DNA of 35,499 nt. Origin: Candidatus Brocadiaceae bacterium (lineage in GTDB: Bacteria > Planctomycetota > Brocadiia > SM23-32). The notes under the pieces are model-generated. The model searched no databases. It had not been told where the DNA came from and saw only the letters and a program-made list of their open reading frames with translations. Both the position numbers and the translations under genes were made by a program. The stretch is taken from assembly GCA_003551305.1 (NCBI GenBank), contig PUMJ01000286.1:1-35499 (forward strand). The letters are read 5' to 3'. Of this stretch, positions 356-16,128 are shown one piece after another (position 1 is the first letter of the stretch; each line of letters opens with the position of its first letter).

Positions 356-1657
356 TCAGTCCGCTTTCAACTCCTCGCAGCTCAGCAGGAAGCGCTCCGC
401 CTCCGTATTCCACAATCCGCCGCCAGCCTGCACCAGGCGGTCCAGCTCACTGAAGACGCTCTTGAGCGGCTCCTGCACCTGGTCGGCGCGGGAAGCGAAC
501 TCCGTGATGGCCGTCAGGGGCATGTTGACGTGGGTGTAGATAAGCTTCTTGCCGCCGGGTACGTCGGGCAGGTCGAGGATAGTGCGGGCCACCGAGTCCA
601 GCCCCCCGACGTGGGTGACCATGCCGGCGGGGTTGAGCCGGCCCTCGCTCATCAATTCCAGGGAGATGCGCATGTCCTCGGTGTTGCCGCCGCTGGTTCC
701 GACCAGGTGGTGCTCCTCGTAGTGCACGTCATAGAAGTTGATGGGGGCGGTAAAGTCCTTGTCCTGCGGGCCGGCGAAGAAATTGAGGCAGCCGTTCCTC
801 CCCAGCATCCGGTCCGCCTGCTCCACCACGGCCGCGTGGGGGTAGAAGACGAACACGTCGTCCATCATCTCCCCTTCCGTGAACTCCCGCACGTACTCGA
901 TCAGGCCACGGAGGTCCTTGCCGAGCTCGGCGGGGTTCACGAAAGCGAGTTCGGTTCCCCCTGCTTTCGCTTCCTCGGGGGGGAAAAGCTCGTGGGCGCG
1001 GGCCAGCCGGCGGGGGTCGACGTCTGTGACCAGCAGGCGTCCGGGCCGGCGCGGTCCGTGCAGGGCAAAGTCAATGGCCCCGAGCCCCATCGGCCCGGCG
1101 GCGGCCAGCAGGGCGCAGTTGCCGCCCTCGCGGATGCCCATCTCGTGATCATAGGTACCGGGCCGCCAGTGGTATTGCGCACGGAATGCGCCGACTATGC
1201 AGGACATCGGCTCGGCCAGCGACGCCTTGAAGAAAGCATCGCCGCTGTAAGGCAACAGGCAGTCCATCAACATCACCTCGCGCGGGATGAGCACGTGTGT
1301 GGCGTTGCCGCCGATGTAACGGTAGGAGTAGCCCGGCGCGTCCGTGGAGCCCCTGTACATGAGCGCCGGCTGGATGGCGAACATCTCCCCCGGCTCGTAA
1401 CGATCCGCCCACCGGGGACCGACGTGCACCAGCCGACCGGCGAACTCGTGCCCGATGATGGTGGGATTCTCAGCCACGTCGTCCGGCACCCGCTTGTGCT
1501 CGGGGCCCTGCTCGGCGGCCTTGTGCGACGACATGCAGATGCTGTTGGTGATGACCTCGGCCACTATCTCGTCGTCGGCCGGCTCGGGTAGACCGAAACT
1601 CTCCAGGCGCAGGTCGCGTTTCCCGTATATCCTCAGAGCCCTCGTGCGCACGGACAT
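356..1657 (-). CDS. Zinc-dependent medium-chain dehydrogenase, L-sorbose-1-phosphate reductase (YggP/SorE) type
   Basis: 433 residues. The sequence follows E. coli YggP almost motif for motif as I recall it: IYGKRDLRLESFGLPE at the N-terminus, EHKRVPDDV, IIGHEFAG (zinc-binding GHE), GYSYRYIGGNATH, SLAEPMSCIVGA, the Rossmann turn AAAGPMGLGAIDFAL followed by VTDVDPRRL, LNFFAGP, GTSGGNTEDM, and GGLDSV...DLPDVPGGKKLIY near the end. Family members oxidise or reduce ketose phosphates or polyols with NAD(P). A C-terminal tail ending in GGGLWNTEAERFLL is also typical of the sorbose-1-phosphate-reductase group. The exact sugar substrate cannot be read from sequence. It is transcribed leftward with the MnmE-like gene 5 bp downstream. 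The ATG is preceded by AAGGGGAG. Confidence 0.9.
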   Translation of the reverse strand: MSVRTRALRIYGKRDLRLESFGLPEPADDEIVAEVITNSICMSSHKAAEQGPEHKRVPDDVAENPTIIGHEFAGRLVHVGPRWADRYEPGEMFAIQPALMYRGSTDAPGYSYRYIGGNATHVLIPREVMLMDCLLPYSGDAFFKASLAEPMSCIVGAFRAQYHWRPGTYDHEMGIREGGNCALLAAAGPMGLGAIDFALHGPRRPGRLLVTDVDPRRLARAHELFPPEEAKAGGTELAFVNPAELGKDLRGLIEYVREFTEGEMMDDVFVFYPHAAVVEQADRMLGRNGCLNFFAGPQDKDFTAPINFYDVHYEEHHLVGTSGGNTEDMRISLELMSEGRLNPAGMVTHVGGLDSVARTILDLPDVPGGKKLIYTHVNMPLTAITEFASRADQVQEPLKSVFSELDRLVQAGGGLWNTEAERFLLSCEELKAD

Positions 1658-1843: not shown

Positions 1844-2206
1844 TCAGGCGACCGTCTCGACCTCCTCCAGCGGTGAGCAGAAGACGATCTCCGTATGCCC
1901 GACCCGGATGACGTCGCCGTCGTAGAGCAGGGAGTTGCGCACGGGTTGGCCGTTCAGGAAGGTGCCGTTGTGGCTGTCTCGATCAACCAGCCAGAAGTAG
2001 GTTCCGTCGTGCTCGACGCGGCAATGCTCGCGCGAGACTCGCCTGTCGGCAATCTTGATGTCGTTGCTGCTGCCGCGTCCGATGGTGAGGGAGCCGCCGC
2101 TGGGGATTTCACAGGTGCGGGAATCGCGCCGTCCGTCTTTGACCTGGAGTCTGGCATCCATCGAATGCTCTACCCGCGCGCTGGCGCCACGTGCGTTCGC
2201 CCTCAC
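1844..2206 (-). CDS. Small FHA-domain protein
   Basis: Up to 120 residues. From about residue 38 there is a single forkhead-associated (phosphothreonine-binding) domain: SLTIGRGSSNDI (arginine of the GRxxxxD/N loop), RRVSREHCRVE, the strand LVDRDSHNGTFLNGQPV (NGTxxNG) and GDVIRVGHTEIVF. GTG at 2206 overlaps the preceding kinase-fragment stop (GTGA), indicating translational coupling; an internal ATG at 2161 would give a 105-residue protein starting MDARLQVKDG, which also fits an FHA-only protein. It is the last gene of the kinase/FHA cluster and would bind phosphorylated threonine on a partner, perhaps a target of the neighbouring kinase. The partner is inference. Confidence 0.82.
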   Translation of the reverse strand: MRANARGASARVEHSMDARLQVKDGRRDSRTCEIPSGGSLTIGRGSSNDIKIADRRVSREHCRVEHDGTYFWLVDRDSHNGTFLNGQPVRNSLLYDGDVIRVGHTEIVFCSPLEEVETVA

Positions 2207-3144
2207 CGTCCCGAGGCCGCCACAGCCTCTTCAAGAGCTTCGGCCATCTCCCCCGGGCTGCTATAGCGTTCATAGTCGGACATCGAACGTGCGATAACCG
2301 CACAGACGCCCTCCGGCACCTCGGGGTTGAGTTCCCGGGGCTCCTGGAAGAGGCGGTCAAACGCGCTGCTCGCCTTGTCGGCGGGCAGATGGCTTCCGAA
2401 GGGGGCCTGTGCACAGAGCATGTAGTAGAGCGTGGCGCCGGCCCCGAAGATGTCGGCTTTCTGGTCGGCGACCACGGGGTAGGCGATCAACTCCGGCGCG
2501 GCGAACTGGGGATCGACCTGGATGCTGCCGTCCATGACACGGGTCACCTGGGCGTCGCGCCGGCCGGTCAGCGGCTTGACCAGGTCGAAGTCCGTCAGCT
2601 TGACCTTCAGCCCTTTGCACACGATGACATTGTCCGGCCGCACGGCCCGGAAGACGATATCCTGCTCGTAGGCGTACTGCAGAGCTTCCAGCACCTGGCG
2701 GATGATCTTGATAGCCATCGGCACGGAGAGCGGCCCGCCTCGCGCTTCGACCACGTCCTCCAGGTTCTTGCCCTCCACGTATTCCATGGCCACGAAGTAC
2801 CAGCCCTCGGTGCGGCCGCCCTTGAAGACGCGCACGAAGTTGGGGTGGCGCAGAGTGGCGCTGTGCTTGGCGCCCCTGATGAAGCGATTCTGATCCTCGA
2901 CACTCAGGTCCTCCAGCGGCTTGAGCACTTTGACGGCGACCGGGGTGCCGGCCTCGGCGTCTTCCGCCCGGAAGACCACGGAGTGCTCGCCGTTGAAGAT
3001 GATCTTGCCCAGCCGGTAGCCGGCGAACTCGTTGCCGCTCAGGGCGGCCACCTTCTCGTATGCCTCCTGCTCAGCCTCACTGGTGCCGAGTTCGGCCAGT
3101 TCGGGCTGGACGCCGCCGGCCCCGACGGGAAAGATGACGCGCAA
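2203..3144 (-). CDS. Degenerate Ser/Thr kinase domain (pseudokinase), C-terminal half of an FHA-kinase fusion split by an in-frame stop
   Basis: The open frame is 313 residues from a TTG at 3144, but the same frame continues upstream through 20 codons that complete an FHA domain (HDGDTITVG) to a TAG at 3207-3205, and then into the FHA start at 3429. The kinase domain covers about residues 43-313. The VAVK lysine (K72), catalytic-loop asparagine (N172) and first DFG aspartate (D185) remain. However, the glycine loop is degenerate (FNGEHSVVF), HRD reads FRA with alanine at 167 replacing the catalytic aspartate, and DFG reads DFD. Phosphotransfer is therefore unlikely, and a regulatory pseudokinase fits better. 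The TTG may just be a permissive internal codon. Its stop overlaps the GTG of the small FHA gene. Confidence 0.72.
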   Translation of the reverse strand: MRVIFPVGAGGVQPELAELGTSEAEQEAYEKVAALSGNEFAGYRLGKIIFNGEHSVVFRAEDAEAGTPVAVKVLKPLEDLSVEDQNRFIRGAKHSATLRHPNFVRVFKGGRTEGWYFVAMEYVEGKNLEDVVEARGGPLSVPMAIKIIRQVLEALQYAYEQDIVFRAVRPDNVIVCKGLKVKLTDFDLVKPLTGRRDAQVTRVMDGSIQVDPQFAAPELIAYPVVADQKADIFGAGATLYYMLCAQAPFGSHLPADKASSAFDRLFQEPRELNPEVPEGVCAVIARSMSDYERYSSPGEMAEALEEAVAASGR

Positions 3145-3204
3145 CTGGTTGCTACCGACGGTGATGGTATCGCCGTCGTGGAGTTCGACCTTCTCCGAGA
3201 TCAG

Positions 3205-3429
3205 CTAGCCGTTGACCCGGGTGCCATTCTTGCTGCCCAGGTCCTCGACGAAGAGGCGGCCTTCTTCGAATGTGAATTCACAGTGGCGGCGGGACAACTG
3301 GTGGTCGCTGATGCGGACTTTGCAGAAAGCCCCCCTGCCGAGCCAAACGGCCTCCTCTTGCTGGACCGGCGGGATCTCGTACTCGAAGTTCGCCTGCCTG
3401 CCGACTTCTATTCGAAGACGGGGATTCAT
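3205..3429 (-). CDS. FHA-domain N-terminal half of the same fusion, ended by an in-frame TAG
   Basis: 74 residues from ATG 3429, which is preceded by a good ribosome-binding site (AGGAAGGA, 7-8 nt away). Visible FHA elements are WLGRGAFCKVRI, HQLSRRHCEF and VEDLGSKNGTRVNG. The TAG falls directly after the NG of the NGTxxNG turn, in the middle of the fold. The last strands of the domain, including GDTITVG and LRVIF, are encoded in the same frame just beyond the stop. A one-base change from CAG (Gln), AAG (Lys) or GAG (Glu) would restore one FHA-kinase protein of about 408 residues. As it stands this half should not fold alone. A sequencing error, a recent nonsense mutation or readthrough are all possible. 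Confidence 0.68.
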   Translation of the reverse strand: MNPRLRIEVGRQANFEYEIPPVQQEEAVWLGRGAFCKVRISDHQLSRRHCEFTFEEGRLFVEDLGSKNGTRVNG

Positions 3430-3481
3430 GGCATATCCTTCCTCGGAGACGCGCCCCGGACTTCAGTCCGTTTGTTCTCTG

Positions 3482-4357
3482 TCAATCCTGGTCCCACGAA
3501 GTCGCGATGTTGCATGCGCTCTGCAGGTCCCGCATTACTTCACTCATAGACTTATAGCGCAAATCCCGGTCCTTTGCAATACATTTTCTGACGACCTCTT
3601 CGAGCGACTCCGGCAGATCCGGATCCACACGCCGAAGGGCCAGTGGCTTGATGTTCAGGTGGTCCTGCATCCGACGGGTACGGTTGCCCGAGCGAGGAAA
3701 CGGCCGGCGAAACGTGAGCACCTCGAAGGTCGAGACCCCAAAGGCGTAGATGTCGGTCCGTTCGTCCACCTGCTGGTTACGGATCTGTTCCGGCGCCATG
3801 TAACTTGCCGTCCCGGCGCGCGTTATAATGGCTCGATGCTTCAAGTTGGCGGGGATCGTCAGGCCGAAGTCGATTATCTTCAGCACGTTGTCCGCCGCGC
3901 ACAACACGTTCTTGGGGCAGAAATCCCTGTGTATCAGCCCCTGCTCATGGATGTAACGCAGACCGGTGCCCATCTGCAGCAGAAAATCGAACCGGTTCTG
4001 CTCGACCCGAGGCGACCGCAGCAGCACCAGCGACTCCAGGGTAGGGCCGTCCACATACTCCATGGCGATGTAGTATTCACCCTTCGGACCGTGCCCGTAG
4101 TCGAAGGTGTTGACCACGTTCGGGTGGTCCAGTCGCACAGCAAGGTCGCCCTCACCCGCCTCAAAGAGCCGCTGAAAGCGTTCCTGGGTCTCGACAGATG
4201 CGGGGGTCAGTATCTTCAAGGCGCAGACGTCCCCCGTCTCGGGGTGCCTGGCTTTCCAGACGCGGCTCATGCCGCCGCGGGCTACCTCCTCGATGAGTTC
4301 GTAGCCGCCGTAGCGGTTCTTACCGCGAAAGAATATGAAATCAAGAAACCTGGCCAT
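3482..4357 (-). CDS. Serine/threonine protein kinase, catalytically plausible
   Basis: 291 residues from ATG 4357 (MARFLDFIFF); the frame stays open to 4477, but that stretch overlaps the end of the upstream gene and has no better start. It is a Hanks-type kinase domain with glycine loop ARGGMSRVW, ATP-binding lysine K48 (CALKIL), HRD intact at 143-145, N150, DFG intact at 163-165, MAPEQ in the activation segment and DIYAFGVSTFEVLT in helix F. One oddity is the catalytic loop HRDFCPKN, where the lysine two residues after the aspartate is cysteine. No membrane segment or sensor domain follows, so it is cytosolic. It lies between two degenerate kinases carrying FHA domains, which suggests it is the enzyme of a small phospho-signalling module. 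Confidence 0.88.
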   Translation of the reverse strand: MARFLDFIFFRGKNRYGGYELIEEVARGGMSRVWKARHPETGDVCALKILTPASVETQERFQRLFEAGEGDLAVRLDHPNVVNTFDYGHGPKGEYYIAMEYVDGPTLESLVLLRSPRVEQNRFDFLLQMGTGLRYIHEQGLIHRDFCPKNVLCAADNVLKIIDFGLTIPANLKHRAIITRAGTASYMAPEQIRNQQVDERTDIYAFGVSTFEVLTFRRPFPRSGNRTRRMQDHLNIKPLALRRVDPDLPESLEEVVRKCIAKDRDLRYKSMSEVMRDLQSACNIATSWDQD

Positions 4358-4421
4358 CTTCGCCTGGTCGAGTTGAACGCTCAAGTCCGATGCCGCCTTG
4401 CCCGCTCCGGCGGCCTCCAGT

Positions 4422-5717
4422 TCATCGCTCTCGGGCGGGCAGCGACATGAAAATCCTGGTCGCCCCGAGGCGCACACAATCGCCAGGGCCTACCTCCTGC
4501 GTGTCCACCCTCTGGCCGTTGACGAAAGTGCCGTTCGTGCTGCCCAGATCCTCAACGCGCACCGTCTGGCCCTCCCGGGCGATGACGGCGTGCTTACGGG
4601 ACAGGGCCGGGTCCATCAACGCCACGTCCGCGTAGTCCGGGTCGCGCCCTATCGTGAGCCTCTCCCCTTCGTGGACCAGGAAGAAACGCCCTCCCCTGCG
4701 GCCCCGCCACACAAAAAACGGGGTGAAAGGCGCCGCCCGCGGGTCGCCCCGGAACTCCAGCATCTCCAGCTCGCCCTCTGCCATCTCCGCGCCCTCCTCC
4801 TGCTCCTGTTGCACCTGCTCGGCCGTCACCTCGGCGGTCTCGGCCGCAGGCAGCGTCGGCCCCTGGCCCGCCACGGCTCCCGGCCGGCGCAGCAGCATCG
4901 CGCTGGCCAGCTCCACCACCACTTCCCCGGGACTGTCGAAACCGCCGGGGCTCAGCAATCGCCGCACGACCTCCTGGATTTGCGGCGAAACGTCGAAATC
5001 GCCGGACTCCAGCTCTGCCAGCGGGCCGGACAAGACTGCCCCGCGGTAGTCCTCAAGCGGCTGTACGCCCCGCTCCGGAACCTCCAGGCCCAGCATCTGG
5101 AGGGTCAGACCGGCCAGCGCCGCAAAGTCCTCCTCCAGTTCCACGCCGGCCGATGCCCCGCTGCTGCTGCGCAGCAGCTCCTCGGCGGTTATCCACTCGT
5201 CTTCCTCCTCTTGAGCCGGCTCAGGGGCGAAGGAGTCGAGGCTCGCCGGATTTTCCAGGAAGCTCTTCCAGGCGAAATCGCTCAGCTTCACCTTCTCCTC
5301 GGACACCATGAACACGTTGGCGGCCCTCAGGTCGCCGTGCGGGTAGCCGACGTCGCGCCCCTTGTCCAGAGCCTGGGCCGCCTGGCGTACGAAGAGGACG
5401 ACCTGCTTCTCCTGCAGGGCGCCCCCCTCCTGCAGCCTCTGCTCCAGCGTCGGGCACTGCATCAACTCCATGGCGATGTAGAACCGGTCGCCCTCCCGCC
5501 CCGCATCACGCAGCTTAACCACGGACGGATGCTCAATCCTGCTGAGACCGGCCAGCGCATCTTCCAGCCGTTCCCTCTGGCCGGCGTCCTGCGGGACCGC
5601 TTCCTCGTTCAGCACACGCAGGGCACACTCCTCGCTCCCGTCCCTGGCCTGGTAGAGCACACTGTAGGAGCCGGCCCCAAGTTCCTCGCGGATGACAAAC
5701 CGCCCGAGTTCCTCCAT
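4422..5717 (-). CDS. Pseudokinase with C-terminal FHA domain
   Basis: 431 residues from ATG 5717, chosen over ATG 5735 because a strong GGAGGAG lies 5 nt upstream. Residues 1-290 have a kinase-like fold (ELGAGSYSVLYQA, HPSVVKL, FYIAMELM). The VAIK lysine is arginine (R34), the catalytic loop is HGD (127-129) and DFG is DFA (147-149). An acidic, glutamate-rich linker (EEEDEW, later QEQEEGAEMAEGELE) precedes an FHA domain at about 340-425 with LTIGRDPDYADV, ALSRKHAVI, LGSTNGTFVNG and GDCVRLG. Loss of the ATP lysine and of DFG argues against catalysis. The FHA domain could recruit a partner phosphorylated by the active kinase encoded next; that role is inferred. It is the first gene of the cluster. 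Confidence 0.85.
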   Translation of the reverse strand: MEELGRFVIREELGAGSYSVLYQARDGSEECALRVLNEEAVPQDAGQRERLEDALAGLSRIEHPSVVKLRDAGREGDRFYIAMELMQCPTLEQRLQEGGALQEKQVVLFVRQAAQALDKGRDVGYPHGDLRAANVFMVSEEKVKLSDFAWKSFLENPASLDSFAPEPAQEEEDEWITAEELLRSSSGASAGVELEEDFAALAGLTLQMLGLEVPERGVQPLEDYRGAVLSGPLAELESGDFDVSPQIQEVVRRLLSPGGFDSPGEVVVELASAMLLRRPGAVAGQGPTLPAAETAEVTAEQVQQEQEEGAEMAEGELEMLEFRGDPRAAPFTPFFVWRGRRGGRFFLVHEGERLTIGRDPDYADVALMDPALSRKHAVIAREGQTVRVEDLGSTNGTFVNGQRVDTQEVGPGDCVRLGATRIFMSLPARER

Positions 5718-5872: not shown

Positions 5873-7648
5873 CTACGCACCGGCGCTCGTCCACAGAAAC
5901 GCCAGGGCCGCCGCCAGGTAGAATTGTCCGTCCACCAGCACCTCGCACAGCTCTTCCCGGACTGCCTCCGAGGTGTGAAGCAGCCTGAAAGCCAGCACCG
6001 AGTAAACGGCCACAATCGACAACAAGTAGGCCAGCGGCGTAAACCAGCCGGTCAGCCCGCCCAGCAGCAATACGGCGACCTGGGCAGCCACGACTGCGAA
6101 AAGCAGGCGCGAGGCGCCGCCCGGCCCGAGCACAGTCACCAGGGTCTCACGTCCCATGAGCTGGTCGGCCTCCACGTCCCTCAAATCCAGGGCCAGCGTC
6201 CGCTGGAATGCTACAAAAAAGCAGACCCCAAAAGCCAGCGCCGCCGGCCACAGGAGCGCCGCAGGCTGCCGGGCGGCCAGGGCGGGAACCGCCGCCGCGA
6301 GCGCCGCCCACGCAAGGCCCACAAACACCTCCTTGCTGGCGGGCACCTGCTCCAGGCTGCGCAGGCCCAGACGTCCCATCAGCGGCCGCGGCAATTTGAG
6401 CCTGTAGACCAGACCGCCCGCCGAGCCGAGCAGCACCACGGCGAAAGCCCACGGCCCGAGCAGCAGAGCGAGAAACAGCGACAGCATCCCCGACGCCCCG
6501 GCCAGCAGCAGCAGGGTCCCCTCGTTGGCCATGAAGAAGTCCGAACGGGCCGGCTCGCTCAGGTAGAGGGAGTGGCGCCGCGTATACTGGTTCAATATCT
6601 GCTGGGCCAGCACGTAGAGGAAACTGATGGCCATGCACACCGCCAGCAAGGGGACTTCGGGGCCGATGAACAGGCGGGAGCTCATGTAAGTGAGGGCCGC
6701 CAGGGCGCCGGCGGCGTAGACGTTGGTGTAGACGGCGGCCCGGCTGACGCCCCTGGCCAGCGCCCGCAGCGGCCGTGTGCGCCGCCTGTGCTCGTCCTGC
6801 AGCCTCAGCATCACCCGGCGCAGCATCCAGTTCGGCGTCGAGGCCCCGGCCGTGAGCCCGACCTTTCGGTACTGCAGAATCCCGTCTACGTTCAACTCGT
6901 GCTCGGTCTCGACGTAATAGGTCGGCACGCCGACAGACTCGCTTATCTCGGCCAGGCGCCGGGTATTGGCGCTGTTGTAGCCGCCCACCACGACGACGGC
7001 GTCGACTCCCGCGGCCAGTTCGCGCACCTCCTGCTGGCGCCTGTCAGTCGAGCGGCAAATCGTCCCGAACGACAGGCAATCTCCGTAACGGCGTCGCACT
7101 GCCTCGACCGTGGCCTGGTAGACCTCCTCGTTCTGGGTCGTCTGGGCGACGACGACGACCTTGTCGGCCTCCGGCAGGGAGGCCACATCCTCCGGCCCGG
7201 CCACCACGCATCCCCGCCCGTCGGCATAGCCCAGCACCCCATCCACCTCGGCATGGCCCGCGTCCCCTACCACCACGCAGAGGTAGCCCTTCGCGGCATG
7301 CTCGGCCACTATCTCCTGCACGCGCCGCACATGGGGACAGGTGGCGTCGAGCAGTTCGCCCACTTGCCGGCGCAGCTTCTCCTGCTCGGCGTAGCAGAGG
7401 CCGTGGGCCCGCACGACAGCCGTGCCACCGCCGCGTTCGGCGTCTTCTTCGTCTTTCATCTGCAGGACGCCCCGCTTGTCCAAAACCTCCAGCACCTGGC
7501 GATTGTGGATGAGCGGTCCCGGTGTGCGGATGGGGAGGGCCGTGCGGGGGTCCTCGGCCGCCTCCAGCACCATGCGCACGGCGCGACGTACGCCCATGCA
7601 GAAGCCCGCAGTATGTGCCAGGACTATTTCGAAGTCTCGGTGCGCCAT
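5873..7648 (-). CDS. ispH: IspH (4-hydroxy-3-methylbut-2-enyl diphosphate reductase) fused to a UbiA-like prenyltransferase domain
   Basis: 591 residues in two parts. Residues 1-285 are IspH, which makes IPP and DMAPP in the last MEP-pathway step. The three 4Fe-4S cysteines are present (C17 in GFCMGVRRAV, C104 in DATCPHV, C198 in GTICRST), as are HNRQV, RAHG, HAEVDG (catalytic glutamate E133), AQTTQ, GGYNSANTRRL and the terminal LTAGASTPNW. Residues about 300-591 are a polytopic membrane domain (seven or more hydrophobic segments) with the UbiA second aspartate motif DLRDVEADQLMGRETL. The first UbiA motif NDxxDxxxD is not evident; the matching place reads NQYTRRHSLYLSEPARSDF. The fusion ties precursor formation to a membrane prenyl-transfer-like domain, but its acceptor is unknown and the second domain may be non-canonical. 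Confidence 0.9.
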   Translation of the reverse strand: MAHRDFEIVLAHTAGFCMGVRRAVRMVLEAAEDPRTALPIRTPGPLIHNRQVLEVLDKRGVLQMKDEEDAERGGGTAVVRAHGLCYAEQEKLRRQVGELLDATCPHVRRVQEIVAEHAAKGYLCVVVGDAGHAEVDGVLGYADGRGCVVAGPEDVASLPEADKVVVVAQTTQNEEVYQATVEAVRRRYGDCLSFGTICRSTDRRQQEVRELAAGVDAVVVVGGYNSANTRRLAEISESVGVPTYYVETEHELNVDGILQYRKVGLTAGASTPNWMLRRVMLRLQDEHRRRTRPLRALARGVSRAAVYTNVYAAGALAALTYMSSRLFIGPEVPLLAVCMAISFLYVLAQQILNQYTRRHSLYLSEPARSDFFMANEGTLLLLAGASGMLSLFLALLLGPWAFAVVLLGSAGGLVYRLKLPRPLMGRLGLRSLEQVPASKEVFVGLAWAALAAAVPALAARQPAALLWPAALAFGVCFFVAFQRTLALDLRDVEADQLMGRETLVTVLGPGGASRLLFAVVAAQVAVLLLGGLTGWFTPLAYLLSIVAVYSVLAFRLLHTSEAVREELCEVLVDGQFYLAAALAFLWTSAGA

Positions 7649-13879: not shown

Positions 13880-15175
13880 CTATGGCCGACCCGCGGTTTC
13901 GACCAGGGCTCCTTCGGCCGCCTGGAGCGTATCCTCGACATCCCCTTCCGTGTGGGCTGCGGAGAGAAACGCCGACTCGAACGGCGACGGCGGCAGCAGG
14001 ACGCCGCGCTCCAGCATGCCGCGGAAGAATCGCGCGTAGCGCTCGCCGTCGGCGGCCCGTGCGCTCCGGTAATCCGTGACGGGGGCGTCGCTGAAGAAGA
14101 CCGTGAACATGCCGCCGCACCGGTTGACCCGCAGGGACAGGTCGGCGGCCCGCGCCATCTCCTGCAGACGGTCCGTCAGCCACCTCGTCAGCGCCTGGAG
14201 CCTCTCGTACGGCGGATCACTGCTCAGCTTCTGCAGGACGGCCAGGCCGGCGGCCGCGACGACGGGGTTGCCGGACAGCGTGCCCGCCTGGTAAACGTCC
14301 CCCAGGGGCGCCAGCCGGTCCATGATCTCCGCCCGTCCGCCGAAGGCGCCCACGGGCAGCCCTCCGCCGATGATCTTGCCGAAAGTCGTCAGGTCCGCCC
14401 GCACGCCGAACCGTCCCTGGGCCCCGCCGGGCCCGACGCGGAAGCCGGTTATCACCTCGTCCAGCAGCAGCACCGCTCCGCTCTCGTCGCAGAGGCGCCG
14501 CAGTTCGGCCAGGAAGCCCTCCCGGGGCGGCACAACGCCCATGTTGCCGGCGACCGGCTCCGCCACAACACACGCCACCCGGCCGGCGTGCTCATCCAGC
14601 AGTTCGGCCACCGAATCGGCGTCGTTGTAGCGGGCCACCAACGTCAGGTCGGCCAGCGCGTCGGGCACGCCGGCGCTGCGGGGTATGCCGAAGGTGGCCA
14701 GGCCCGAACCCGCCGACGCCAGGAAGCTGTCCGCGTGGCCGTGGTAGCCGCCGGCGAAGACGATGATCATGTCCCGCCCGGTGTGGGAACGCGCCAGGCG
14801 GACAGCGCTCATCAGGGCCTCCGTGCCGGAGTTGACCAGCCGCAGCCGTTCGATACCGGGCGCCGCATCCATGAGAACTTCGGCGAGCTCGGCTTCCACG
14901 CGGGTGCACATGCCGTAGCCCGTGCCGCGCCAGGCGGCCTCGCGCACGGCGGCGGTCACCTCCGGCGCCGCGTGGCCGAGGATGAGCGCCCCCCACGACA
15001 TCAGGTAATCCACGAAGCGACGACCCTCGATGTCGTAAAGGTGCGCGCCCTTGCCGCGCTCGGCGAACAGCGGCCTCCCCCCCACGGCGTCGAAGGCCCG
15101 CACGGGGCTGTTGACGCCCCCCGGCATCAGCCGGCGGGCGCGTGTGTGCGTCGTCTCCGTCAGCTTGCCAGCCAT
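13880..15175 (-). CDS. hemL: Glutamate-1-semialdehyde 2,1-aminomutase
   Basis: 431 residues from ATG 15175, preceded by GAGGCGG; the frame is open to 15859, but that extension lies antisense-free within hemB's other frame and encodes nothing HemL-like. The enzyme converts glutamate-1-semialdehyde to 5-aminolevulinate with PMP/PLP. Signatures are LMPGGVNSPVRAF at the N-terminus, MSWGALILGH, NSGTEALMSAVRLARSHTGRD, FAGGYHGHADSFL, AEPVAGNMGVVPP, LLDEVITGFRVG, the PLP lysine in TFGKIIGGGLPVGAFGG, YQAGTLSGNPV and a C-terminal MLERGVLLPPSPFE. It has normal length. Its start overlaps hemB by 16 bp, and it is the last gene of the tetrapyrrole operon, supplying the substrate for HemB. Confidence 0.96.
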   Translation of the reverse strand: MAGKLTETTHTRARRLMPGGVNSPVRAFDAVGGRPLFAERGKGAHLYDIEGRRFVDYLMSWGALILGHAAPEVTAAVREAAWRGTGYGMCTRVEAELAEVLMDAAPGIERLRLVNSGTEALMSAVRLARSHTGRDMIIVFAGGYHGHADSFLASAGSGLATFGIPRSAGVPDALADLTLVARYNDADSVAELLDEHAGRVACVVAEPVAGNMGVVPPREGFLAELRRLCDESGAVLLLDEVITGFRVGPGGAQGRFGVRADLTTFGKIIGGGLPVGAFGGRAEIMDRLAPLGDVYQAGTLSGNPVVAAAGLAVLQKLSSDPPYERLQALTRWLTDRLQEMARAADLSLRVNRCGGMFTVFFSDAPVTDYRSARAADGERYARFFRGMLERGVLLPPSPFESAFLSAAHTEGDVEDTLQAAEGALVETAGRP

Positions 15176-16128
15176 TGGACCGCCTCTTCGGCGTAGTAGG
15201 TGATTACCGCATCCGCACCGGCCCGCTTGATGCTCAGCAGCGCTTCCAGCGCCGCCTCTCGCTCGTCCAGCGCCCCGGCCTGCGCCGCGTGCTTCAGCAT
15301 AGCATATTCGCCGCTCACGTGGTAGGCCGCCAGCGGCAGGCGGCTGCGCCGTCGCAGCTCCGCCAGCACGTCGAGGTAGGGCAAAGCGGGCTTGACCATC
15401 AGCCAGTCCGCTCCCTCCTGCTCGTCCAGCAGGGCATCGGCGATCGCCTCTCGCCGGTTGGATGGGGGCAACTGGTAGCCGCGCCGGTCTCCCCGGCCCG
15501 GCGCCGAGCAGGCCGCCTCGCGAAACGGCCCGTAGAAGGCCGAGGCGAACTTGGCCGCGTAGGACATCACCCCCACCCCGGTGTAACCGGCGCCGTCGAG
15601 CGCCTGGCGGATCGCCCCCACCTGCATGTCCATCATCCCGGAGGGGGCCACCAGGTCCGCCCCCGCTTCGGCGTGGGCCAGTGCCATACGGCCCAGTGCT
15701 TCCAGAGTGCGGTCGTTGTCCACCTCTGCCCCTTCGGTCAGCACGCCGCAATGGCCGTGCGTTGTGTAGGCACAGAGGCAGAGGTCCGTTATCACGGTCA
15801 GCGCGGGCCGTTCGGCTTTCAGGCGTCGCACGGCCGACGCCACCAGGTCCCCTTCCCACGCTGCCGAGCCGGTCTCATCCCTGGAGTCGGCCTCGGGCAC
15901 GCCGAAGACGAGCACGGCCGCGCTCCGCCAGCGGCCCGCCTCGGCGGCCATCCGGTCCGCGCTCAGGCGTCGGACGCCCGGCATCGCCGCGATGTCCTGC
16001 TCCCGGTCCGCGCCCGGAATGGCGAACACCGGGAGTATGAAGTCGTCCGGCAGCAGGCGCGTCTCACGGGCCAGCCGTCTCAGGCCGTCCGAGCGCCTGC
16101 GACGGCGCATCCTGACCCTCTTGTCCAT
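15160..16128 (-). CDS. hemB: Porphobilinogen synthase (5-aminolevulinate dehydratase)
   Basis: 322 residues. It condenses two 5-aminolevulinates into porphobilinogen. The zinc-type cysteine motif DLCLCAYTTHGHCG is intact, so this is a zinc-dependent rather than Mg-only form. Both active-site lysine segments are present: MSYAAKFASAFYGPFR and MVKPALPYLD. Also visible are LVAPSGMMDMQVGAIR, YHVSGEYAMLK and a basic N-terminus MDKRVRMRRRRRSDGLRRL. The ATG overlaps the cobA-hemD gene by 65 bp and the stop overlaps hemL by 16 bp, a sign of a tightly packed operon. The long overlap is unusual; ATG 16110 is an alternative that shortens it only slightly. Confidence 0.95.
   Translation of the reverse strand: MDKRVRMRRRRRSDGLRRLARETRLLPDDFILPVFAIPGADREQDIAAMPGVRRLSADRMAAEAGRWRSAAVLVFGVPEADSRDETGSAAWEGDLVASAVRRLKAERPALTVITDLCLCAYTTHGHCGVLTEGAEVDNDRTLEALGRMALAHAEAGADLVAPSGMMDMQVGAIRQALDGAGYTGVGVMSYAAKFASAFYGPFREAACSAPGRGDRRGYQLPPSNRREAIADALLDEQEGADWLMVKPALPYLDVLAELRRRSRLPLAAYHVSGEYAMLKHAAQAGALDEREAALEALLSIKRAGADAVITYYAEEAVQWLAS

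What the first reader, a model, noticed from the sequence alone, without database searches (positions are those of the whole stretch)
1844..5717. One active-type kinase flanked by two FHA-linked pseudokinases
The cluster encodes pseudokinase-FHA (VAIK Lys to Arg, DFG to DFA), a kinase with HRD and DFG intact, FHA-pseudokinase (HRD to FRA, DFG to DFD) and a lone FHA protein. Different catalytic residues are lost in each pseudokinase. This looks like a signalling complex with one enzyme and several phospho-readers or scaffolds.
Basis: partly seen in the sequence, partly recalled or inferred. Interest (0 to 1): 0.6.

Follow-up and report, generated by a model that had tools for sequence, protein, structure and literature searches.

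The report
Kinase with two FHA-linked pseudokinase partners
A group of uncultured bacteria related to the anammox planctomycetes keeps a four-gene set with one apparently working protein kinase, two kinase-like proteins that have lost key catalytic residues but carry intact phosphate-reading (FHA) domains, and one more FHA protein; the set is conserved in at least five genera, so it looks like a real signalling unit and not decaying genes.

Summary
On the minus strand lie K1 (pseudokinase-FHA), K2 (kinase), K3 (FHA-pseudokinase) and F4 (FHA alone). Second, K2 is active-type but not canonical: its catalytic loop reads HRDFCPKN, Cys replacing the usual Lys. This is a signature of a Planctomycetota-wide kinase family (50 of 392 genomes; control pattern 0).

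All four genes, in order, occur in five genera of one family. K3 is FRA/DFD in 5 of 5; K1 lacks at least one catalytic-triad residue in 4 of 4, though not the same one. K3's activation segment is its most conserved part. A sister family has only K2-K3, with K3 HRN/DFG, so inactivation looks stepwise.

The best model is a cytosolic phospho-threonine module: one writer, three readers, two pseudokinase adaptors. Complex formation is inferred, not shown.

The parts
4422..5717 (-). K1: pseudokinase-FHA protein (431 aa). Kinase N-lobe with beta3 Lys to Arg, alphaC Glu to Ala, HG-D, DFA; no recognisable APE; long acidic linker; C-terminal FHA domain.
   Evidence: Pfam; orthologues in G006, G001, G004 at 51-53% identity and the FHA end of one in G003; motifs
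3482..4357 (-). K2: stand-alone protein kinase (291 aa) with all catalytic-triad residues; catalytic loop HRDFCPKN. An in-frame start further upstream (TTG near 4383, GTG 4477) is possible.
   Evidence: Pfam; 60-69% identical orthologues in 4 genera, 48% in the sister family; Cys-loop family
2203..3429 (-). K3: FHA-pseudokinase (409 codons with the stop), interrupted in this contig by TAG at codon 75. VAVK kept, alphaC Glu to Gly, HRD to FRA, DFG to DFD.
3205..3207 (-). In-frame TAG inside the FHA domain of K3 (Glu codon in all four orthologues)
1844..2161 (-). F4: single FHA-domain protein (105 aa), phospho-threonine-binding residues intact. A GTG at 2206 overlaps the K3 stop.
   Evidence: Pfam E 4e-20; 50-54% identical orthologues in 4 genera
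5873..7648 (-). Flanking gene: LytB/IspH fused to UbiA-type prenyltransferase, directly upstream of K1 in the family genomes that carry the cluster and extend that far
   Evidence: Pfam; synteny
356..1657 (-). Flanking gene: zinc-type alcohol dehydrogenase-like protein downstream of F4, same place in G001, G004, G003
   Evidence: Pfam; synteny

Best explanation
The four genes encode a cytosolic phospho-threonine signalling module kept by selection. Shown: one kinase (K2) keeps all residues of the catalytic triad. Two kinase-like proteins (K1, K3) have lost catalytic residues but remain conserved, and three FHA domains keep their phospho-threonine-binding residues. Inferred: K2 is the writer and phosphorylates threonines on K1, K3, F4 or an outside client. 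The FHA domains then join the phosphorylated proteins. K3 keeps the ATP- and metal-site Lys, Asn and Asp and an almost invariant activation segment, so it acts as a nucleotide-capable allosteric partner or docking substrate of K2. K1, more degraded, is a second adaptor added later. The oldest part is the K2-K3 pair; K1 and F4 were joined to it in one family.
For: Four-gene order and both flanks are conserved across five genera at 50-70% identity. K3 FRA/DFD is invariant in 5 of 5. Its segment from DFD through the helix after APE is 48 of 59 invariant against 48% for the whole protein, each half P about 1e-4, while K2's catalytic loop is 13 of 13. dN is well below (near-saturated) dS in all three genes. 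The FHA residues GR, S-x-x-H and NG(T) are conserved in K1, K3 and F4 orthologues (lists). The sister family has only K2 and K3 adjacent, K3 being HRN with DFG intact. K3 falls with FHA-pseudokinases of other planctomycete families, which share loss of alphaC Glu and HRD Asp (90/89 support with motif columns removed). No membrane-spanning segment is evident by hydropathy.
Against: No interaction, activity or expression data. Proximity and synteny do not prove a complex. The window's own K3 carries a stop codon, so the module may be broken in this strain. Four of nine family genomes lack K2 and K3, so it is dispensable. The K1 structure model was too poor to use (mean pLDDT 51). The FHA-pseudokinases of other families sampled have no Cys-loop kinase next to them.
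Confidence: 0.55

Rival explanations
1. K1, K3 and F4 are phospho-switch substrates of K2, in the way of OdhI/GarA: K2 phosphorylates a threonine outside the FHA domain, which folds back onto its own FHA and releases a client enzyme. The pseudokinase parts are client-binding folds, and no multi-protein complex forms.
For: K1 matches the OdhI and FhaB models beyond the FHA core, though below their cut-offs. K3's activation segment, including an invariant Thr, is its most conserved part.
Against: No Thr in K1's linker is conserved in all four orthologues. The adjacent K2-K3 pair in the sister family fits a direct partner equally well.
Confidence: 0.2
2. The genes are neighbours with separate jobs: K2 acts on unrelated targets, and the FHA proteins read marks written by other kinases of the cell (23 Pkinase matches in this genome).
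For: In other families K2-type kinases and FHA-pseudokinases are usually not adjacent. The genome has many kinases.
Against: Strict four-gene order in five genera and joint absence of K2 and K3 in four family genomes.
Confidence: 0.15
3. K1 and K3 are decaying paralogues or pseudogenes.
For: In-frame TAG in K3 here; variable catalytic residues in K1.
Against: Open in all other genera; 64-70% (K3) and about 51% (K1) identity with dN well below dS; no loss of conservation after the stop; invariant non-catalytic segments.
Confidence: 0.04
4. K3 is a repurposed ATP-using enzyme (for example AMPylation or glutamylation, as known for SelO and SidJ folds) and not a pure scaffold.
For: Beta3 Lys, catalytic-loop Asn and DFD Asp are invariant with an invariant FRAVRPDN loop.
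Against: AlphaC Glu and the glycine-rich loop are lost; no new active-site residues were identified.
Confidence: 0.06

Closest known systems
Mycobacterial PknB - MviN pseudokinase - FhaA
   Same: One active Ser/Thr kinase, a pseudokinase and an FHA protein; the phosphorylated pseudokinase recruits the FHA (review PMC12599244)
   Different: MviN is a membrane protein whose pseudokinase ATP site is blocked; here the pseudokinases are soluble and fused to FHA, K3 keeps the ATP-site Lys, and all are in one gene cluster
Rad53/Chk2 (FHA-kinase order)
   Same: K3 has the same FHA-then-kinase layout; the Rad53 structure 5xzv aligns over both domains
   Different: Rad53/Chk2 are active kinases; K3 lacks the catalytic base
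Type VI secretion PpkA kinase and Fha protein
   Same: Kinase plus FHA reader of phospho-threonine (PMC3953482)
   Different: No secretion genes among the neighbours identified by Pfam here; the FHA matches TagH only far below cut-off
Seven described bacterial pseudokinase families (ActPs1-3, DLHK, GLW, CP1, DYD)
   Same: Conserved bacterial pseudokinases with defined catalytic losses (PMC12599244)
   Different: The review does not mention Planctomycetota and names a forkhead-associated domain only for FhaA (word search of its text); K3 keeps beta3 Lys and DFG-Asp but loses HRD-Asp, unlike the described patterns that were read
OdhI/GarA/FhaB small FHA proteins
   Same: FHA proteins read or receive kinase marks
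   Different: Model scores far below cut-off

Membership tests
Pseudokinase (loss of beta3 Lys, HRD-Asp or DFG-Asp; definition from PMC12599244) | K3 lacks at least one of the three | tested here: met
   HRD-Asp to Ala in 5 of 5 orthologues, Asn in the sister family
Pseudokinase (loss of beta3 Lys, HRD-Asp or DFG-Asp; definition from PMC12599244) | K1 lacks at least one of the three | tested here: met
   Window: Lys to Arg. G006: HRD-Asp to Asn. G001: all three. G004: Lys to Gln and DFG-Asp to Ala
Pseudokinase (loss of beta3 Lys, HRD-Asp or DFG-Asp; definition from PMC12599244) | No phosphotransfer activity in vitro | not testable with these tools
   needs an enzyme assay
Active Hanks-type kinase (K2) | Lys, alphaC Glu, HRD-Asp, Asn and DFG-Asp present | tested here: met
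   invariant in orthologues
Active Hanks-type kinase (K2) | Catalytic-loop Lys two residues after HRD-Asp | tested here: not met
   Cys in 5 of 5; Asn in sister family; Lys in most other kinases sampled
FHA domain, phospho-threonine-binding | GR, S-x-x-H and NG residues | tested here: met
   conserved in K1, K3 and F4 orthologues
ActPs2 pseudokinases | beta3 Lys to Arg, HRD-Asp to Asn, DFG deleted | tested here: not met
   K3 keeps Lys and DFG-Asp; K1 has no DFG deletion (definition)
ActPs3/MviN | membrane fusion, lost ATP-site residues | tested here: not met
   no hydrophobic segment; K3 keeps VAVK
PASTA kinase (NF033483) | score over cut-off with PASTA repeats | tested here: not met
   K2 222 bits against 450
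PD-T4-6 phage-defence kinases (PADLOC) | membership beyond a generic kinase match | tested here: inconclusive
   many kinase models hit all three kinase-like proteins

The most novel reading that the evidence does not exclude
K3 and K1 are obligate pseudokinase activators of a Cys-loop kinase, a bacterial counterpart of kinase-pseudokinase-scaffold complexes such as LKB1-STRAD-MO25. The conserved catalytic-loop Cys of the K2 family, replacing the catalytic Lys, would be a regulatory (for example redox) switch.
Probability: 0.12. Interest if true: 0.75.

Novelty: new variant of a known kind. Interest (0 to 1): 0.5.

Why it matters
Bacterial pseudokinases are little studied, and few have a known partner. 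Here an FHA-pseudokinase sits next to its likely kinase, with an intermediate state (HRN, DFG intact) in a sister family and intact FHA-kinases elsewhere in the phylum, so stepwise loss of catalysis and gain of an adaptor role can be tested directly. The same work exposes a planctomycete-wide kinase family with Cys in place of a residue usually treated as near-invariant in Ser/Thr kinases.

Tried and rejected
Decay or annotation error: rejected by five-genus conservation. TAG recoding: rejected because TAG ends a neighbouring conserved gene and relatives have Glu codons. A recurring stop at this FHA position in other genomes (internal TAG/TGA flags): four cases read, no shared in-frame stop seen. 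Phage defence: PADLOC hits are generic kinase models. A K1 orthologue in the sister family: the kinase beside IspH-UbiA in G009 is an ordinary intact kinase without FHA. K1 structure model: too poor to interpret. K3 fold search returned ordinary bacterial Ser/Thr kinases such as PknB and PknE, no pseudokinase-specific match. Co-occurrence of Cys-loop kinase and FHA-pseudokinase across the phylum: both in G392 and G324 but on different contigs, no Cys-loop match in G282 or G153, so no claim is made.

Full report
Setting. The window is one whole contig (C275, 35,499 bases) of a fragmented draft genome of 3.9 Mb in 298 contigs. Many genomes of the same class carry the hydrazine synthase alpha family; the window's genome and its family do not. 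This, with a Planctomycetota-labelled hit among the relatives of K1, points to uncultured, non-anammox relatives of the anammox bacteria. The organism's name was not available, so this placement is an inference.

Observation. Four minus-strand genes fill 5717..1844 exactly as reported. K1 (5717-4422) is a kinase-like domain followed by FHA. K2 (about 4357-3482) is a lone kinase. K3 (3429-2203) is FHA followed by a kinase-like domain. F4 (2161-1844) is a lone FHA. Pfam supports all domains. K1 reads CALRVL, HGD, DFA; K2 reads ALK, HRD, DFG; K3 reads VAVK, FRA, DFD.

Two corrections. K3 has an in-frame TAG at 3207-3205, inside its FHA domain. Four relatives have GAG or GAA there and an open gene. 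The frame is otherwise open, and the part after the stop is no more diverged than between other relatives. TAG ends the neighbouring IspH-UbiA gene, so it is not recoded. No second copy of K3 was found in the genome. It is therefore a recent nonsense change or a consensus error; the data here cannot tell which. K2 has the residues of an active kinase, but its catalytic loop is HRDFCPKN, with Cys where Ser/Thr kinases have Lys.

Conservation. Genomes G001, G003, G004 and G006, each a different genus of the same family, carry all four genes in the same order, with IspH-UbiA upstream and the ADH-like gene downstream where the contig reaches (K1 is cut by the contig end in G003). Four other family genomes lack K2 and K3; they have the flanking genes, but on different contigs and, where read, without kinases beside IspH-UbiA.

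Pattern of loss. K3 is FRA and DFD in 5 of 5 orthologues, with beta3 Lys, catalytic-loop Asn and DFD-Asp kept. K1 differs: beta3 Lys is R, K, R, Q; HRD is HGD, HGN, HGN, HGD; DFG is DFA, DFA, GFA, AFA in window, G006, G001, G004. Every K1 fails the triad, but not at the same residue, which fits absence of selection for catalysis. AlphaC Glu is Gly in all K3 and Ala in all K1, and present in K2. In contrast the FHA residues for phospho-threonine are conserved in all three FHA proteins.

Selection. K3's activation segment (27 of 34 invariant) and the stretch after APE (21 of 25) are the most conserved parts of the protein (48% overall; P 1e-4 and 2e-4), whereas in K2 the peak is the catalytic loop (13 of 13). 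In K1 the conserved parts are a helix before the catalytic loop and the last kinase helix. dN is 0.18-0.45 against dS of roughly 0.6-1.7, which is close to saturation. These proteins are kept, and in K3 the surface that faces substrates in an active kinase is the part kept most.

History. In G009, of another family of the same order, K2 and K3 are adjacent without K1 or F4; K3 there reads HRN with DFG intact and alphaC Glu already Gly. FHA-kinases of this layout are common in the phylum; 20 were read, most with HRD. In a tree with the catalytic columns removed, K3, the G009 protein and HRN proteins of G392, G324, G282 and G153 fall on one side of a branch (support 90/89); two others with lost Asp (G010, G213) fall elsewhere. 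The members of that side also lack alphaC Glu. Branches are long and support is moderate, so a single origin is likely but not certain (AU test on all Asp-less rows, p 0.18).

K2 family. K2-like kinases elsewhere in the phylum also read HRDxCPxN. A DNA pattern for this motif matched 53 places in 50 of 392 genomes, the reversed control none. The 20 loci read around such matches all encode kinases, 19 of them with beta3 Lys, HRD and DFG in place and one whose N-lobe was not aligned. Tyrosine kinases also lack Lys at this position and place a basic residue further on; K2 has Lys there (established knowledge; whether it compensates here is untested).

Mechanism. The most likely reading is a cytosolic module with one writer and three phospho-threonine readers, two of them carrying pseudokinase domains as adaptors or allosteric partners. 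What is shown is the anatomy, its conservation and the direction of change. What is inferred is activity of K2, inactivity of K1 and K3, and binding between the products. The nearest studied parallel is PknB-MviN-FhaA in mycobacteria (PMC12599244); the layout of K3 matches Rad53/Chk2.

Limits. No complex prediction, no reads, no named taxonomy. The K3 model is usable (mean pLDDT 77) but its activation segment is of low confidence; the K1 model is not usable. Phylum searches sampled 392 genomes.

Noticed in passing
window:3908-3931 (K2) and L132-L181: Planctomycetota-wide family of mostly stand-alone kinases with the catalytic loop HRDxCPxN (Cys for the usual Lys): 53 matches in 50 of 392 genomes, reversed control 0.
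   Followed up: partly
window:17500-19641 (-): Apparent three-part fusion: siroheme-type NAD-binding domain, glutamyl-tRNA reductase and porphobilinogen deaminase in one 713-aa protein, close to ALAD at 15160-16128. Full-length relatives in G002, G007 and G012.
   Followed up: partly
window:5873-7648 (-): LytB/IspH fused to a UbiA-type prenyltransferase; also in G001, G004, G005, G007, G008 and G009.
   Followed up: partly
L092, L094, L095, L096 (same genome, other contigs): Further degenerate kinases in the same genome, e.g. HGH/LFD, HYN/KYG (twice), HGN/HPG, HGN/DFL.
   Followed up: no
L123 (G010:C17) 2891-4240 (-): FHA-pseudokinase with HRA/NLG in the same class that falls outside the K3 lineage in the tree: a likely independent loss.
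   Followed up: no
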